From Kribbella pratensis (GTDB lineage: Bacteria; Actinomycetota; Actinomycetes; Propionibacteriales; Kribbellaceae): a stretch of 64,000 nt of DNA. This document shows, in pieces, positions 57,909 to 63,119 of this stretch. How positions within the stretch are numbered: position 1 is the stretch's first letter; each line of letters begins with the position of its first letter. The notes beneath the pieces are model-generated. The model did not search any database, was not told the DNA's origin, and was given only the letters and a program-made list of their open reading frames with translations. A program made the position numbers and the translations under genes. The stretch lies in the NCBI RefSeq assembly GCF_004366075.1, contig NZ_SODU01000001.1:558001-622000 (forward strand), written 5' to 3'.

Positions 57909-58361
57909 TCAGTGGTGGTTGGGGCCGTCGTCCGAGGACTTTCCGGAGCCGTGCTTACCGGACGTCGACCCGCTGGTAGTGCTGGACTTGCCCGACCCGG
58001 TGCGGTCGCCGCCCTTGTCGTCACCGGGCTCCGTGGTGGCGGTTGGGCTCGGCGTGCGGGTGCGGTCGCCGCCGTGGTCGTCGGGGGTCGGGGTGACCTG
58101 CTCGCTCTGCGGCGTGATCGTCTCCGGCGGTGGGAACCACAGCGGCGCCGGAGACCGGCCCGGTGTCCCAGGGTCGAACGCGGACCACACCGCCGTACCA
58201 CCGGCCACCAGGCCTCCCGCCGCAACCACTCCGAGCAGTCCGGTGCCCGCCCACGCGAGGTAGCGCCGGGTACGACGGGGCGCCGTCGCCTCGGACTGAC
58301 CGGCGTGCAGGACCACAGGCCGTCGGCGTACGTCGTCGGCGTCTTCCGGGTGGCCGTTCAT
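57909..58361 (-). CDS. Small single-pass membrane protein with Ser/Gly/Lys-rich tail
   Basis: A 150-residue protein I do not recognise. A basic cytoplasmic N-terminus (about 1-32, with APRRTRRYLAW) leads into one membrane helix at about 33-53 (AGTGLLGVVAAGGLVAGGTAVW). The outer part is low-complexity and disordered: a Pro/Thr linker, then DDHGGDRT and DDKGGDRT repeats, and a GSGKSSTTSGSTSGKHGSGKS tail. The ATG is at 58361. CTAGTACCAAGGT lies 39 nt upstream in the same orientation as the copy 41 nt upstream of the ABC exporter gene, so it is probably co-regulated with the RS-peptide operon. Its Ser/Thr-rich tail could be a kinase substrate, but this is a guess. Confidence 0.6.
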   Translation of the reverse strand: MNGHPEDADDVRRRPVVLHAGQSEATAPRRTRRYLAWAGTGLLGVVAAGGLVAGGTAVWSAFDPGTPGRSPAPLWFPPPETITPQSEQVTPTPDDHGGDRTRTPSPTATTEPGDDKGGDRTGSGKSSTTSGSTSGKHGSGKSSDDGPNHH

Positions 58362-58400
58362 GACTCGATCGTGTCGCAACCGGCGTCCCGGCACCATCGG

Positions 58401-58417
58401 ACCTTGGTACTAGTACC
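58401..58417 (-). promoter_or_regulatory. Shared operator (copy 1) upstream of the small membrane protein
   Basis: Read leftward, CTAGTACCAAGGT ends 39 nt before the ATG at 58361. It overlaps the palindrome GGTACTAGTACC (58406-58417) and the last codon region of the response regulator gene. The identical 13-mer precedes the ABC exporter. Confidence 0.65.
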
Positions 58418-59043
58418 TAGTCGTCGTCGCGGCGTTGACGCTGGGCCCACAGGGCAGCCTGCGTGCGGTCCGTGACGCCCAGGCGCTGGTACACGTTCGT
58501 GAGGTGCGCCTTGACGGTCCGCTCGCTGATCCCCAGCCGACGGGCGATCGTCTTGTTCGGCAGGCCCGCGCCGACCATGGCGAGCACTTCCTGTTCCCGG
58601 TCGGTCAGCTTCGTCTCAGGCCCGGGCGAGCGCCGGTTCGTCAGCAGCACCCGGGCCGCCTTCGGATCCAGCGGCGAGCCACCGGACACGATCTCCCGGA
58701 TCCCGGCCAGGATCACTTCGGGTTCGCTGTGCTTCAGCAGGTACCCCTCGGCCCCGGCCTGCAGCGCGTCCAGGATCCGCGTCTGATCGCTGAACGACGT
58801 CAACACCAGCACATGCACCTCAGGAGCCGCCGCGACGATCCGCTCGGTCGCCGCGATCCCGTCGGTCCCCGGCATCGACAGATCCATCAGTACGACGTCC
58901 GGCCGCAACTCGGCCGCCATCGTCGCCGCCTCGGCACCGTCCCCGGCGGCCCCGACCAGCTCGATGTCGTCCGCCGTACCCAGCAACTGGGACAAGCCGG
59001 TCCGGACGATCGCATGGTCGTCGGCAATCAACACCCGGATCAT
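58417..59043 (-). CDS. NarL/LuxR-family response regulator
   Basis: A 208-residue response regulator. The receiver domain has acidic DDH near residues 8-10, phospho-acceptor Asp54 in VVLMDLSMPG, VLTSFSD, and YLLKHSEPE. The LuxR helix-turn-helix covers about 140-200 (LTDREQEVLAMVGAGLPNKTIARRLGISERTVKAHLTNVYQRLGVTDRTQA). I chose ATG 59043, with GGGGGAG six bases upstream, over GTG 59061. Its gene follows the histidine kinase directly. It probably binds CTAGTACCAAGGT sites at both ends of this two-gene unit. Confidence 0.93.
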   Translation of the reverse strand: MIRVLIADDHAIVRTGLSQLLGTADDIELVGAAGDGAEAATMAAELRPDVVLMDLSMPGTDGIAATERIVAAAPEVHVLVLTSFSDQTRILDALQAGAEGYLLKHSEPEVILAGIREIVSGGSPLDPKAARVLLTNRRSPGPETKLTDREQEVLAMVGAGLPNKTIARRLGISERTVKAHLTNVYQRLGVTDRTQAALWAQRQRRDDD

Positions 59044-59057
59044 CCGCTCTCCCCCTG

Positions 59058-60401
59058 TCACACCGGCACCTCGGCTTCCACCCGTGTCCCCTGGCCGGGC
59101 GCGGCCCGGACGGTCAGTGTGCCGCCCGACTCGGCCAGCAGGTCGCCGATCGAGCGTAGCCCGAGGTGCCCGTCGCTACTGCGCTCTCCGAGCCGCGACT
59201 CGTCGAATCCGCGCCCGTCGTCGTCGACGATCAGCACCGCACGCCCGTCGACGCGACCGGCCTTGATGAGCACCTCGGCGGCTCCGCTGTGCGCAGCGAC
59301 GTTCCGCACCACTTCCTGCGCGGTCCGGAACAACAGCGCCGCAACAGCCGGTGGCAGCTCCTCCGCGCCGTCGGTCTCGAGCCGAACCTCGACCCCTGCC
59401 CGCTCCAGTCCGGCTGCCAGCTCGGCCAGCGCCGACGCCAGCCCCTCCTCGGCGAGGTTCGGCGGATAGATGTCGACCAGCAACGACCGCAGCGATCCGA
59501 TACTCGCCCGCAGCCGCCCGGCGCCGTCCGCGATCAACTCCGCCCGCTGGTCGTCGGTCGGGTGACCGAGCCGCATCGCATCGAACGCATAGTTCAACCC
59601 GGTCAGCTCCTGCACGACGCCGTCGTGCAACTCCCCCGCGATGCGCCGGCGCTCGGCGTCCGAGGCGTCGACGGCGTGCTGGAGCAATCGCTCCCGGTCC
59701 TGCTGCTGCCGCTGCACCCTCCGGGCCAGCGACCACGCGAACGGAATCTGCACCAACTCCAGCACCAGCAACGCCCCCAACGACGGCGGCGCGAACCGCT
59801 TCCACGCGGCCTGTCCCGCCGCGGTGACCGCCTGATACTCGAAGTACGCCTCGAACAGCATCGGCTCACCATTGGTCCCCCGCACCCCGACGTACACCTC
59901 GAGCAACTTCTCGTACGGGATCTCGAACTGGTTCTCCGGCCGGCTCAGGTCACTCACTTCGGACTCACTGCTGCCCTGCCGCCGCAGCGCTTCCTGCTCC
60001 TCGGGTCCGAGAGGGAACTGCCGACCGATCAGCCGCGGCTCGTCCGAGTACACGATCCGGCCGTCGGCGTTCCACAACTTCACCCGGACCAGGGACCCTT
60101 GCAACACGTACTTCCGCATCGCCGCGTCGAACGATCGCAGCGCTGCGGGCTCCCCGGCCACCACCGCAGCGTCCAGTCGCGGTTCAACAACACCCCGCGC
60201 TGTCACGTAGGTGACCTGCCGGGCCGACTCGGTCGCTTGCTCGACGCCGGCCTGCCGCGCCACGAAGGCGATCAGCGCGGCCAGCGAGAGCAGCACGATC
60301 ACACCGGCTGCTGTGAAGCGCACCAGCAACCCGACCGTGGAGCCGTGCTGTCTGGTGCGCTCGGTCAGCTGGCCGCGGTCCGCGCGCCGAAGTCTCCCCA
60401 T
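59058..60401 (-). CDS. NarL-type sensor histidine kinase (HisKA_3)
   Basis: A 447-residue sensor. The first membrane helix is at about 24-48, followed by an extracellular domain at about 50-200 (LVRVKLWNADGRIVYSDEPRLIGRQFP, double-PAS/Cache-like) and a second helix at about 205-227. The HisKA_3 dimerisation domain has phospho-acceptor His259 in RIAGELHDGVVQEL. The ATPase domain has EVVRNVAAHSGA (N box), DDDGRGFD, GHLGLRSIGDLL and GGTLTVRAAPGQGTRVEA. It starts at ATG 60401. It is divergent from the ABC exporter operon by 105 bp, a common arrangement for envelope-stress or peptide-sensing systems. Confidence 0.93.
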   Translation of the reverse strand: MGRLRRADRGQLTERTRQHGSTVGLLVRFTAAGVIVLLSLAALIAFVARQAGVEQATESARQVTYVTARGVVEPRLDAAVVAGEPAALRSFDAAMRKYVLQGSLVRVKLWNADGRIVYSDEPRLIGRQFPLGPEEQEALRRQGSSESEVSDLSRPENQFEIPYEKLLEVYVGVRGTNGEPMLFEAYFEYQAVTAAGQAAWKRFAPPSLGALLVLELVQIPFAWSLARRVQRQQQDRERLLQHAVDASDAERRRIAGELHDGVVQELTGLNYAFDAMRLGHPTDDQRAELIADGAGRLRASIGSLRSLLVDIYPPNLAEEGLASALAELAAGLERAGVEVRLETDGAEELPPAVAALLFRTAQEVVRNVAAHSGAAEVLIKAGRVDGRAVLIVDDDGRGFDESRLGERSSDGHLGLRSIGDLLAESGGTLTVRAAPGQGTRVEAEVPV

Positions 60402-60451
60402 GTCAGGGATCGTAGGGTGCGCCCACCGCCGCACGGCAGCCCGACAACGGT

Positions 60452-60506: not shown

Positions 60507-62183
<1,677 letters not shown>

Positions 62184-62188
62184 ATCCG

Positions 62189-62281
62189 ATGCGTGTCAAG
62201 CCTGTCATGCACCACGGACGGTCCCGTAGCCGGTCCCGTTCGCGCAGCCGCAGCCGTTCCCGCAGCCGCTCGCGCGGCTGA
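62189..62281 (+). CDS. 30-residue RS-repeat peptide
   Basis: A 93-bp gene encodes a 30-residue peptide: MRVKPVMHHG, then nine Arg-Ser dipeptides, then Arg-Gly. It has 11 Arg, 1 Lys and 9 Ser, a side-chain charge near +12. AAGGAGGTGA (62174-62183) is a near-perfect Shine-Dalgarno sequence eight bases from the ATG and contains the exporter stop codon. Serines use TCC, TCG and AGC, and arginines use CGG, CGT and CGC, in no repeating order. The DNA is therefore not a simple repeat and the amino-acid pattern itself appears selected. A strong hairpin follows, then a kinase gene. I know of no named family. Possible roles are an exported cationic peptide, a phosphorylated peptide, or a nucleic-acid-binding protamine-like peptide. 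Expression is very likely, and the function is unknown. Confidence 0.8.
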   Translation: MRVKPVMHHGRSRSRSRSRSRSRSRSRSRG

Positions 62282-62288
62282 CCCACCA

Positions 62289-62320
62289 GCCTGCCGCCGG
62301 GCGGCCTCCCGGCGGCAGGC
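62289..62320 (+). terminator. Intra-operon hairpin between RS-peptide and kinase genes
   Basis: A perfect 13-bp GC-rich stem (62289-62301 with 62308-62320, 6-nt loop) begins 8 nt after the peptide stop codon and ends 22 nt before the kinase GTG. It has no long U-tract. It may act as an attenuator or as a 3' RNA stabiliser, so that the peptide is made in excess over the kinase, as is usual for peptide precursor genes. Confidence 0.8.
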
Positions 62321-62342
62321 TCCGATCTTGCTGGAGAGAATC

Positions 62343-63119
62343 GTGTTAGCCGACATAGAGACAGACACCGAGGACGGACTGCCCGTCTGGGACTGGGCCG
62401 AGCGCTGCGAACTGCCTGGCGGAACGTTCGCCGTCGAACGCCTCGGCGTCGGCCATCGTTGCGAGACCTGGCTGGTCTGGTCGGTCGCACTCTGGGCACC
62501 GGCCGTCCTCAAGGCCGCTCGCCCTCACCAGATCCAGCACCCCCGCGCGGTCAAGTCCCTGCGCCGTGAGACCGCCGCGCTGTCCGGCAACATTCACCCG
62601 GCCGTCCCGAGGCTGCTGGGCGACGGCACGGACGCCGCGATCCCCTATGTTCTCGTCGAGTACGTCGACGGCCCGACGCTGGGCGACGAACTGGAGGAGA
62701 ACGGCGTTCTGAGTGTCGAGGAGACCGCTCTCCTGGGATCTCAGCTGCTCCCAGCTCTGATGGCACTGCACCGGCGTGGTCTCGCTCATCTCGACGTGAA
62801 ACCGGACAACATCGTCCTGCGCGACGGTCGACCAGTCCTGATCGACTACGGCAGTGCCAGGGCCATCGGGAGCGCACAGCCGGCTGGTCACCCGGTCGGT
62901 ACGCTCGGCTACGCGTCACCGGCGCAAGAGGCCTGCGAGCCGGTGTCCGCCGCGATGGACCTCTACAGCCTCGGCCAGACGCTGGCCGAAGCCTGCGGTG
63001 AGCTGCCTGACAGCCTGCGGTTCCTGCTCATGCCTAATCCCACCGTTGAGCAGGCGTTGACCGCGCTGGCGGAGGCGGCCGGCGAGCTGCGCCCGTGGCC
63101 GGCCTGGCTCAGGGCATGA
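62343..63119 (+). CDS. Minimal Hanks-type Ser/Thr kinase
   Basis: A 258-residue soluble kinase with no membrane, PASTA or sensor domain. Catalytic parts are complete: a degenerate Gly loop LGVGHRCETW, Lys57 in PAVLKAAR, Glu76 in LRRETAAL, catalytic loop HLDVKPDN (149-156, Asp151 and Asn156), DYG (168-170) in place of DFG, GTLGYASPAQE (186-196) in place of the APE segment, and DLYSLGQTL. HLD rather than HRD indicates a non-RD, constitutively active kinase. I chose GTG 62343 with GGAGAG upstream; ATG 62193 in the same frame lies inside the peptide gene. Codon 2 is TTA, rare in this DNA. The likely substrate is the RS peptide (inference from adjacency). The 3' end overlaps the SnoaL gene by 11 bp. 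Confidence 0.88.
   Translation: MLADIETDTEDGLPVWDWAERCELPGGTFAVERLGVGHRCETWLVWSVALWAPAVLKAARPHQIQHPRAVKSLRRETAALSGNIHPAVPRLLGDGTDAAIPYVLVEYVDGPTLGDELEENGVLSVEETALLGSQLLPALMALHRRGLAHLDVKPDNIVLRDGRPVLIDYGSARAIGSAQPAGHPVGTLGYASPAQEACEPVSAAMDLYSLGQTLAEACGELPDSLRFLLMPNPTVEQALTALAEAAGELRPWPAWLRA

What the first reader, a model, noticed from the sequence alone, without database searches (positions are those of the whole stretch)
62189..62281. A bacterial RS-repeat peptide gene: nine consecutive Arg-Ser dipeptides
The sequence shows a 30-codon gene with the strong Shine-Dalgarno sequence AAGGAGGTGA eight bases before its ATG. It encodes MRVKPVMHHG, nine Arg-Ser dipeptides and Arg-Gly. Serine codons come from both unlinked families (TCN and AGC) and arginine codons vary, so the repeat is not a DNA slippage product; selection for the alternating residues is the simplest explanation. 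It lies between an ABC exporter gene and a kinase gene. Pure RS dipeptide tracts are the hallmark of eukaryotic SR proteins. I know of no described bacterial peptide of this kind.
Basis: partly seen in the sequence, partly recalled or inferred. Interest (0 to 1): 0.95.

Follow-up and report, generated by a model that had tools for sequence, protein, structure and literature searches.

The report
Exported bacterial Arg-Ser repeat peptide
A tiny gene in Kribbella and some other actinobacteria encodes a peptide of alternating arginine and serine (or threonine), set between an exporter gene and a protein-kinase gene in every such locus read here; the kinase is predicted to phosphorylate the repeats, and the peptide would then likely be exported, which would be a bacterial counterpart of the Arg-Ser tracts of eukaryotic splicing proteins.

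Summary
Window 62189-62281 encodes MRVKPVMHHG(RS)9RG; its Shine-Dalgarno overlaps the stop of an ABC exporter gene and a Hanks-type kinase gene follows. It is neither chance nor slippage. Among 38 Kribbellaceae genomes, exporter and kinase occur in the same 9, and all 9 have the peptide. The same exporter-peptide-kinase order was read at 10 loci outside Kribbella. There the core is RS, RT or mixed; between the first and last full dipeptide the hydroxyl positions are Ser/Thr in 114 of 114 and the others Arg in 105 of 114 (untrimmed tracts show no such contrast). A GC-rich hairpin follows the peptide gene in 22 of 22 loci, and a two-component system stands beside 14 of 17. Best explanation: a RiPP-like cassette whose kinase phosphorylates the Ser/Thr and whose ABC protein exports the peptide. 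Phosphorylation, export and purpose are inferred, not shown. No Pfam or NCBIfam family describes the peptides, and seven literature searches aimed at them found no report. Unexplained: synonymous sites of the RS core are nearly frozen in six Kribbella species.

The parts
62189..62281 (+). RS-repeat peptide gene, MRVKPVMHHG(RS)9RG: N-terminal part 1-10, Arg-Ser core 11-28, RG end
   Evidence: present in 9 of 9 Kribbellaceae genomes that have the exporter and kinase
62174..62183 (+). Shine-Dalgarno AAGGAGGTGA; its TGA is the exporter stop
   Evidence: exporter stop 5 bases before the peptide ATG in all 9 Kribbella loci
60507..62183 (+). ABC exporter (ABC_membrane + ABC_tran, 558 aa, no C39 peptidase domain found)
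   Evidence: found in the same 9 of 38 genomes as the kinase
62288..62321 (+). GC-rich RNA hairpin (14-bp stem, 6-nt loop) just after the peptide stop
   Evidence: (z of the 75-nt segment -3.0 here; 22 of 22 loci have a hairpin, z -1.8 to -6.5)
62343..63119 (+). Hanks-type Ser/Thr protein kinase, 258 aa, GTG start, catalytic motifs intact (VLK, HLDVKPDN, DYG)
   Evidence: AlphaFold2 mean pLDDT 90.8; best-ranked solved fold PknB
59058..60434 (-). Sensor histidine kinase, divergent from the exporter
   Evidence: sensor and regulator beside the cassette in 14 of 17 loci, window included
58417..59061 (-). Response regulator with a LuxR-type (GerE) DNA-binding domain
57909..58397 (-). Small protein with one hydrophobic stretch and a Ser/Thr/His/Asp/Lys-rich tail, downstream of the regulator
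   Evidence: no Pfam family; homologues in 5 of 6 named Kribbella loci; clusters with a protein in L046 and L047

Best explanation
The gene at 62189-62281 encodes a short peptide of nine Arg-Ser repeats that belongs to a family of small actinobacterial peptides encoded between an ABC exporter and a Hanks-type kinase; the kinase is predicted to phosphorylate the Ser/Thr of the repeats and the exporter would likely carry the peptide out of the cell. Likely order of events (all inferred): the strong Shine-Dalgarno coupled to the exporter stop, and the hairpin after the peptide stop, give much peptide and less kinase. The kinase reads the N-terminal part (R-[IV]-x-x, then a His/Gly/Lys-rich spacer) and phosphorylates alternate residues of the core, turning a strongly cationic chain into an alternating Arg(+)/phospho-Ser(-) chain. 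The exporter then secretes it whole (no leader peptidase seen in the cassette). The divergent two-component system controls the cassette, probably by sensing the exported product or the envelope state it causes. Shown: gene order, conservation, Ser/Thr exchange, hairpin, co-occurrence. Inferred: phosphorylation, export, regulation. The biological role (signal, antimicrobial or metal/polyanion binder) is not decided by these data; a secreted signal or antimicrobial is my first guess.
For: Exporter and kinase are in the same 9 of 38 Kribbellaceae genomes and the peptide is in all 9. G030 keeps the small protein, regulator and sensor in synteny but lacks exporter, peptide and kinase together. Ten loci outside Kribbella have the same order, one with two tandem peptide genes (G230). 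The core is RS, RT (L046, mostly L053) or mixed (L048, L051). Between the first and last full dipeptide the hydroxyl positions are Ser/Thr in 114 of 114 and the alternate positions Arg in 105 of 114; Fisher P 0.003, 16 distinct peptides that are not independent by descent. Three more distant loci with related kinase and exporter have a short peptide in the same slot with a Ser/Thr-containing tail without RS repeats (L052, L054, L055); L052 and L054 share RVRGxHxVF with the RT peptide of L053. The kinase keeps its catalytic motifs and has Asp/Glu in KP[DE]N in 19 of 22 homologues, the position of PKA Glu170, an Arg-binding residue (recalled).
Against: No direct evidence of translation, phosphorylation or export. 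The kinase could act on the exporter or another protein. No leader peptidase or other maturation enzyme was seen in the cassette. Two of 17 loci (L048, L053) show no homologue of the two-component system and L050 (a 5.1-kb contig) only a distant regulator. The contrast between Ser/Thr and Arg positions depends on trimming: in the untrimmed tracts Ser/Thr is 123 of 146 and Arg 128 of 146, because N-terminal units (RG, RD) and last residues (G, D, C, Y) then count. The near-freezing of synonymous sites in the RS core of six Kribbella species points to a nucleic-acid constraint that the peptide model does not explain.
Confidence: 0.57

Rival explanations
1. The kinase phosphorylates the repeats only as a step to dehydration (Dha/Dhb), so this is an unrecognised lanthipeptide-like RiPP.
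For: In class III/IV lanthipeptide synthetases a Ser/Thr-kinase-like domain phosphorylates peptide Ser/Thr before elimination (PMC10604976, abstract and passages). The kinase shows weak similarity to LanL (69.6 bits against a cut-off of 650).
Against: The kinase is a lone 258-aa domain; no HopA1-type lyase in the window's genome (0 matches; OspF/SpvC-type lyases and LanC cyclases were not searched); no further gene family shared across genera other than the two-component system and a small protein beside it was noticed in the flanks clustered (home-made gene calls, 16 loci); 12 of 16 distinct peptides lack Cys.
Confidence: 0.12
2. The RS ORF is a regulatory leader: its translation, together with the following hairpin, sets expression of the kinase (attenuation or coupling), and the peptide itself has no function.
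For: Hairpin after the stop in 22 of 22 loci; synonymous sites of the RS core nearly invariant in six Kribbella; Arg is kept in both RS and RT cores.
Against: RS changes to RT while R-[IV]-x-x near the N-terminus is kept in 13 of 16 peptides (read); G230 has two peptide genes; in G018/G006 synonymous change is free (pS 0.48) while residues are kept (pN 0.073); the hairpin lacks a T run in the window.
Confidence: 0.14
3. The peptide acts inside the cell as a pseudosubstrate or scaffold that controls the kinase, or as a protamine-like nucleic-acid binder controlled by phosphorylation; the exporter carries something else.
For: Peptide and kinase are adjacent at every locus read; eukaryotic RS domains bind RNA and protein and are controlled by phosphorylation (recalled).
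Against: The exporter is in the same 9 genomes as peptide and kinase, its stop codon lies in the peptide's Shine-Dalgarno in Kribbella, and an ABC exporter gene precedes the peptide at the loci outside Kribbella.
Confidence: 0.1
4. Chance or slippage-made RS tract without function.
For: Such tracts exist: G011 has a perfect CGCAGT run.
Against: Mixed codons from both serine families, presence in 9 of 9 and in other genera, conserved ribosome-binding site and position.
Confidence: 0.01

Closest known systems
Eukaryotic SR proteins and their kinases SRPK/CLK
   Same: Arg-Ser dipeptide tract with a Ser/Thr kinase as likely partner
   Different: 25-44-aa stand-alone peptide, no RNA-binding domain, ABC exporter partner, kinase nearest to bacterial PknB by sequence and fold; Thr can replace Ser throughout
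Phosphorylated lasso peptides (BsfK, ThcoK, SyanK)
   Same: Short ribosomal peptide, kinase that phosphorylates it and ABC transporter in one cluster (PMC10368454, abstract and passages)
   Different: BsfK has weak similarity to HPr kinases; lasso cyclase and leader peptidase are present there; here a Hanks kinase and 5-9 candidate sites in one tract
Class III/IV/V lanthipeptide synthetase kinases (LanKC, LanL, LanK)
   Same: Kinase phosphorylating Ser/Thr of a precursor peptide (PMC10604976, passages)
   Different: No lyase or cyclase domain on this kinase; no HopA1 lyase in the genome
MsbA/Sav1866-type ABC exporters
   Same: ABC_membrane + ABC_tran half transporter
   Different: Linked to this cassette by co-occurrence; below the cut-off of each of the 25 NCBIfam families shown of 190

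Membership tests
RiPP cassette (broad sense) | Short ribosomal precursor peptide next to a possible modifying enzyme and an exporter | tested here: met
   19 of 19 RS/RT loci read
RiPP cassette (broad sense) | Post-translational modification of the core shown | not testable with these tools
   needs mass spectrometry
Lanthipeptide, class III/IV/V | Phospho-Ser/Thr lyase and LanC-like cyclase with the kinase | tested here: not met
   kinase is one domain only; HopA1 lyase 0 matches in the window's genome; LanC and OspF/SpvC-type families not searched
Lasso peptide | B protease and C cyclase genes in the cluster | tested here: inconclusive
   no such gene noticed in the clustering, but B and C models were not run
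Eukaryotic SR protein | RNA-binding domain plus RS domain, homology | tested here: not met
   peptides are 25-44 aa; Pfam and NCBIfam hits are weak composition matches, best E 0.033 and 0.071
SRPK/CLK kinases | Closest relatives among SRPK/CLK | tested here: not met
   best-ranked solved sequences and folds are bacterial kinases such as PknB, StkP, PknG and PknA
Hanks-type Ser/Thr kinase | Pkinase domain with catalytic Lys, HxD and D[FY]G motifs | tested here: met
   PF00069 85.2 bits, cut-off 31.7; K57, H149, D151, N156, D168, G170 invariant in 22 aligned homologues
Attenuator leader peptide | Codons sense one amino acid; terminator after the leader | tested here: inconclusive
   Ser is replaced by Thr in a whole tract but Arg is kept; hairpin present in 22 of 22, without a T run in the window

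The most novel reading that the evidence does not exclude
A new class of bacterial secreted phosphopeptide: actinobacteria make, multiply phosphorylate with a dedicated Hanks kinase, and export Arg-(phospho-Ser/Thr) repeat peptides, a convergent bacterial RS-domain chemistry used outside the cell and wired to a two-component system.
Probability: 0.43. Interest if true: 0.93.

Novelty: new variant of a known kind. Interest (0 to 1): 0.82.

Why it matters
RS dipeptide tracts with their own kinases are known as a feature of eukaryotic RNA splicing (recalled). A bacterial operon that pairs a nearly pure RS or RT peptide with a kinase and an exporter would show the same chemistry arising on its own for a different, probably extracellular, use. 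It would add a peptide class that is easily overlooked because the precursor is about 30 residues and of low complexity. The system is directly testable with a handful of genes in soil actinobacteria.

Tried and rejected
Slippage origin: rejected (mixed codons; G011 microsatellite as contrast). Selection against identical neighbouring RS units: tested, no effect (14 of 119 identical, 13.9 expected by shuffling). A known RNA family in the region: none of 4 matches at its gathering score. A strong RNA fold over the whole peptide gene: not convincing (z -1.54, 13 of 200 shuffles as good). A +2 frame running into the kinase (ORF 62193-63119): in G032 and G026 its open stretch ahead of the kinase is only some 60-70 bases, so not taken as a gene. 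Plasmids: the kinase search gave 2 Pseudonocardia records, 42% identical over 56% of the query, taken as other kinases without reading their context. Wider searches: 2 of 394 genomes of the class (window's own included) have the kinase and 3 of 197 in the family of G230, so the cassette is rare and patchy. Of the 80 loci I read the region upstream of the kinase in L046-L055 and in L057, L059, L062 (the last three: other kinases, no such peptide); L040-L045 are Kribbella species already read under their G handles; the other 61 were not read. Counts and dropped rows: the first phase count anchors tracts on Ser/Thr and so favours that phase by design (verified set: 159 of 159 Ser/Thr, 127 of 139 Arg; 28 database peptides: 184 of 191 and 129 of 163). 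Of the 85 hits I fetched 39 and left out 11 that looked eukaryotic or unrelated before that count. The symmetric count uses 16 distinct peptides read beside exporter and kinase; trimmed 114 of 114 against 105 of 114, untrimmed 123 of 146 against 128 of 146. The exporter-stop position printed for G230 was not used, since a first peptide copy lies between.

Full report
The observation. Window 62189-62281 (+) encodes MRVKPVMHHGRSRSRSRSRSRSRSRSRSRG. The Shine-Dalgarno AAGGAGGTGA (62174-62183) contains the stop codon of the upstream ABC exporter frame (60507-62183). The kinase gene starts at GTG 62343 and ends at 63119. The RS tract uses TCN and AGC serine codons and three arginine codons.

Is it real? 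The 30-residue peptide was sought in all 38 Kribbellaceae genomes that the search drew. Seven have it at E 9.5e-7 or better. The kinase is found in 9 of 38 at E 1e-40 and the exporter in 9 of 38 at E 1e-130: the same nine genomes. The two not found with the peptide query have divergent peptides in the same place, MPRIAPTMYHKRHKRHNKHSRSHSRSCSRSRSRSRSRC and MPRIAPTMYHKRHRRHRKHSRSWSRSCSRSRSRSRSRC. So 9 of 9 loci with exporter and kinase have the peptide. The best unrelated hit is a perfect CGCAGT microsatellite in G011. A tenth genome, G030, has the neighbouring sensor, regulator and small protein in synteny (77% identical DNA over 2348 columns), but no exporter, peptide or kinase, neither in a 17-kb stretch there nor at the thresholds used genome-wide: the three genes come and go together.

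Outside Kribbella. A scan of named genomes with a kinase alignment kept 80 loci, and an order-wide search found the kinase in 13 of 391 genomes, 4 of them outside Kribbellaceae. Reading the closest loci gave, each between exporter and kinase: Actinoplanes sp. NBRC 103695 MAGRRIQSPLQHRGGRKQTRTRTRTRTRTRTRG; A. solisilvae MAGRIQTPLEYRKRHHKKRRHSRSRSRSKSRSRSRCH; Actinoplanes sp. TBRC 11911 MAGRIQTPLEYWKKHHGKHDHSRSDSRSKSRSKSRCD; Nocardioides mangrovicus (L048; G091 has the same sequence) MVKKAIRKHRTRTRSRSRSRSRSHG; Jatrophihabitans MAG MTTSTRVQGPITHHGRGRDRDRDRSRSRSRSRSRD; Pseudonocardia endophytica MMIKSAVLAATSVRSHGRRRTRTRSRTRSRG; an actinobacterial MAG (L053) ending in KSRTRTRTRTRTRG; G067 (Microlunatus flavus by its identical record and contig length) MIIIRIKGLVADRKHGRSRSRSRSRSYSRSRSRY; G116 MKAFHLGIKGLLSKRSHSRSRSRSRSRSRSRSRG; and G230 with two tandem genes ending in KHG(RS)8. 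With the nine Kribbella that makes 19 RS/RT loci. In several (L046, L047, L049, G116) the exporter frame runs 50-83 bases into the peptide gene instead of ending at its Shine-Dalgarno. Three more distant loci with related kinase and exporter (L052, L054, L055) have short peptides whose tails hold Ser/Thr but no RS repeat.

A profile search of 5.8 billion proteins with the family gave 85 hits at E up to 10. Only three have E below 1e-3, and two of these are the Microlunatus and Pseudonocardia peptides already known from their loci (annotated 'hypothetical protein'). Of the 39 sequences fetched many share the plan by eye, such as MSTSRIAGGILAPVQAPRKHGRTRTRTRTRSHS (E 0.025) and MITILTPIKGPVDQHGRSRTRSRSRSRSRD (E 5e-4); their genomic context is unknown, and others in the list are eukaryotic or unrelated.

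What is conserved. In 16 distinct context-verified peptides, tracts trimmed to their first and last full dipeptide have Ser/Thr at 114 of 114 hydroxyl positions and Arg at 105 of 114 alternate positions, the rest being His, Cys, Lys, Trp, Asp, Tyr (Fisher P 0.003, the peptides are related by descent). Without trimming the contrast is gone (Ser/Thr 123 of 146, Arg 128 of 146), since leading RG/RD units and end residues then count. The stronger point is that Thr replaces Ser in single places and in a whole tract (L046). The simplest reading is that the hydroxyl is what matters, which points to the neighbouring kinase. In the N-terminal part, R-[IV]-x-x is present in 13 of the 16 (read), followed by a His/Gly/Lys-rich stretch in most.

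Selection. For the K. rubisoli/K. capetownensis pair pS is 0.48 and pN 0.073 over the whole peptide: synonymous change is free, residues are kept. Four other pairs have pN/pS from 0.35 to 0.54; the window/G016 comparison (0.83) was aligned from the C-terminus across an indel and is not informative. In six close Kribbella the RS core is different: pN 0 and pS only 0.037, against 0.308 in the exporter and 0.452 in the kinase, and none of 571 exporter and 256 kinase windows of 20 codons is as low. This extra nucleotide-level constraint is unexplained.

Neighbouring elements. A GC-rich hairpin stands just after the peptide stop in 22 of 22 loci (19 RS/RT and 3 distant), with different sequences; z-scores of the 75-nt segments run from -1.8 to -6.5, 20 of 22 at -2.0 or below. 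In the window it has no T run; I take it as a stabiliser or partial terminator that gives more peptide than kinase (inference). Homologues of the divergent histidine kinase and of the regulator stand at the cassette in 14 of 17 loci (window, L040-L051, L053, L133-L135); none was found in L048 and L053, and L050, a 5.1-kb contig, shows only a distant regulator.

The kinase. PF00069; AlphaFold2 mean pLDDT 90.8; the best-ranked solved sequences and folds are bacterial kinases led by PknB, so it is not an SRPK relative. Its catalytic motifs are intact and 19 of 22 aligned homologues have Asp/Glu in KP[DE]N, the place of an Arg-binding Glu in PKA (recalled). It has no lyase or cyclase domain, and the genome has no HopA1-type lyase (other lyase types not searched), so phosphorylation rather than dehydration is the more likely end state.

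Mechanism. I commit to a RiPP-like cassette: peptide made in excess, its Ser/Thr phosphorylated by the dedicated kinase, exported by the ABC protein, under the control of the adjoining two-component system. Gene order, co-occurrence, conservation and Ser/Thr exchange are shown; the enzymatic step, export and purpose are inferred.

Known systems. Phosphorylated lasso peptides show that a cluster kinase can phosphorylate a precursor (PMC10368454, abstract and passages), and lanthipeptide synthetases use Ser/Thr-kinase-like domains on precursors (PMC10604976, abstract and passages). In what I saw of them neither has RS repeats or this gene set. Seven literature searches aimed at such peptides (listings only) showed no report of a bacterial peptide of this kind; three more looked for comparison systems. 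Most subscription papers are not in that library. No Pfam or NCBIfam model describes the 16 peptides scanned.

Noticed in passing
window 62219-62278 and L001-L006: Synonymous sites of the RS core are almost invariant among six Kribbella species (pS 0.037 against 0.31-0.45 in the flanking genes); the last 20 codons of the exporter are also among its lowest windows. Cause unknown.
   Followed up: partly
P0247 (Parafilimonas MAG) and P0267: Short proteins with RT/RS tails but other N-termini: one with a Gly-Gly-type leader-like stretch in a Bacteroidota MAG, one with a signal-like hydrophobic N-terminus; possible independent exported RT/RS peptides.
   Followed up: no
L052, L054, L055: Distant cassettes with related kinase and exporter and a short peptide whose tail holds Ser/Thr without Arg alternation; L052 and L054 share RVRGxHxVF with the RT peptide of L053, L055 has RVKGxxxVF.
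   Followed up: partly
L008 (G011): A perfect CGCAGT tandem repeat encodes an RS tract in a 150-aa frame; unrelated, slippage-type.
   Followed up: yes
L132/L135 (G230): Two tandem RS peptide genes in one cassette.
   Followed up: yes
window 57909-58397 (-): Small protein with one hydrophobic stretch and a charged, Ser/His-rich tail, no Pfam match, kept beside the two-component system in 5 of 6 named Kribbella loci and in G030.
   Followed up: partly
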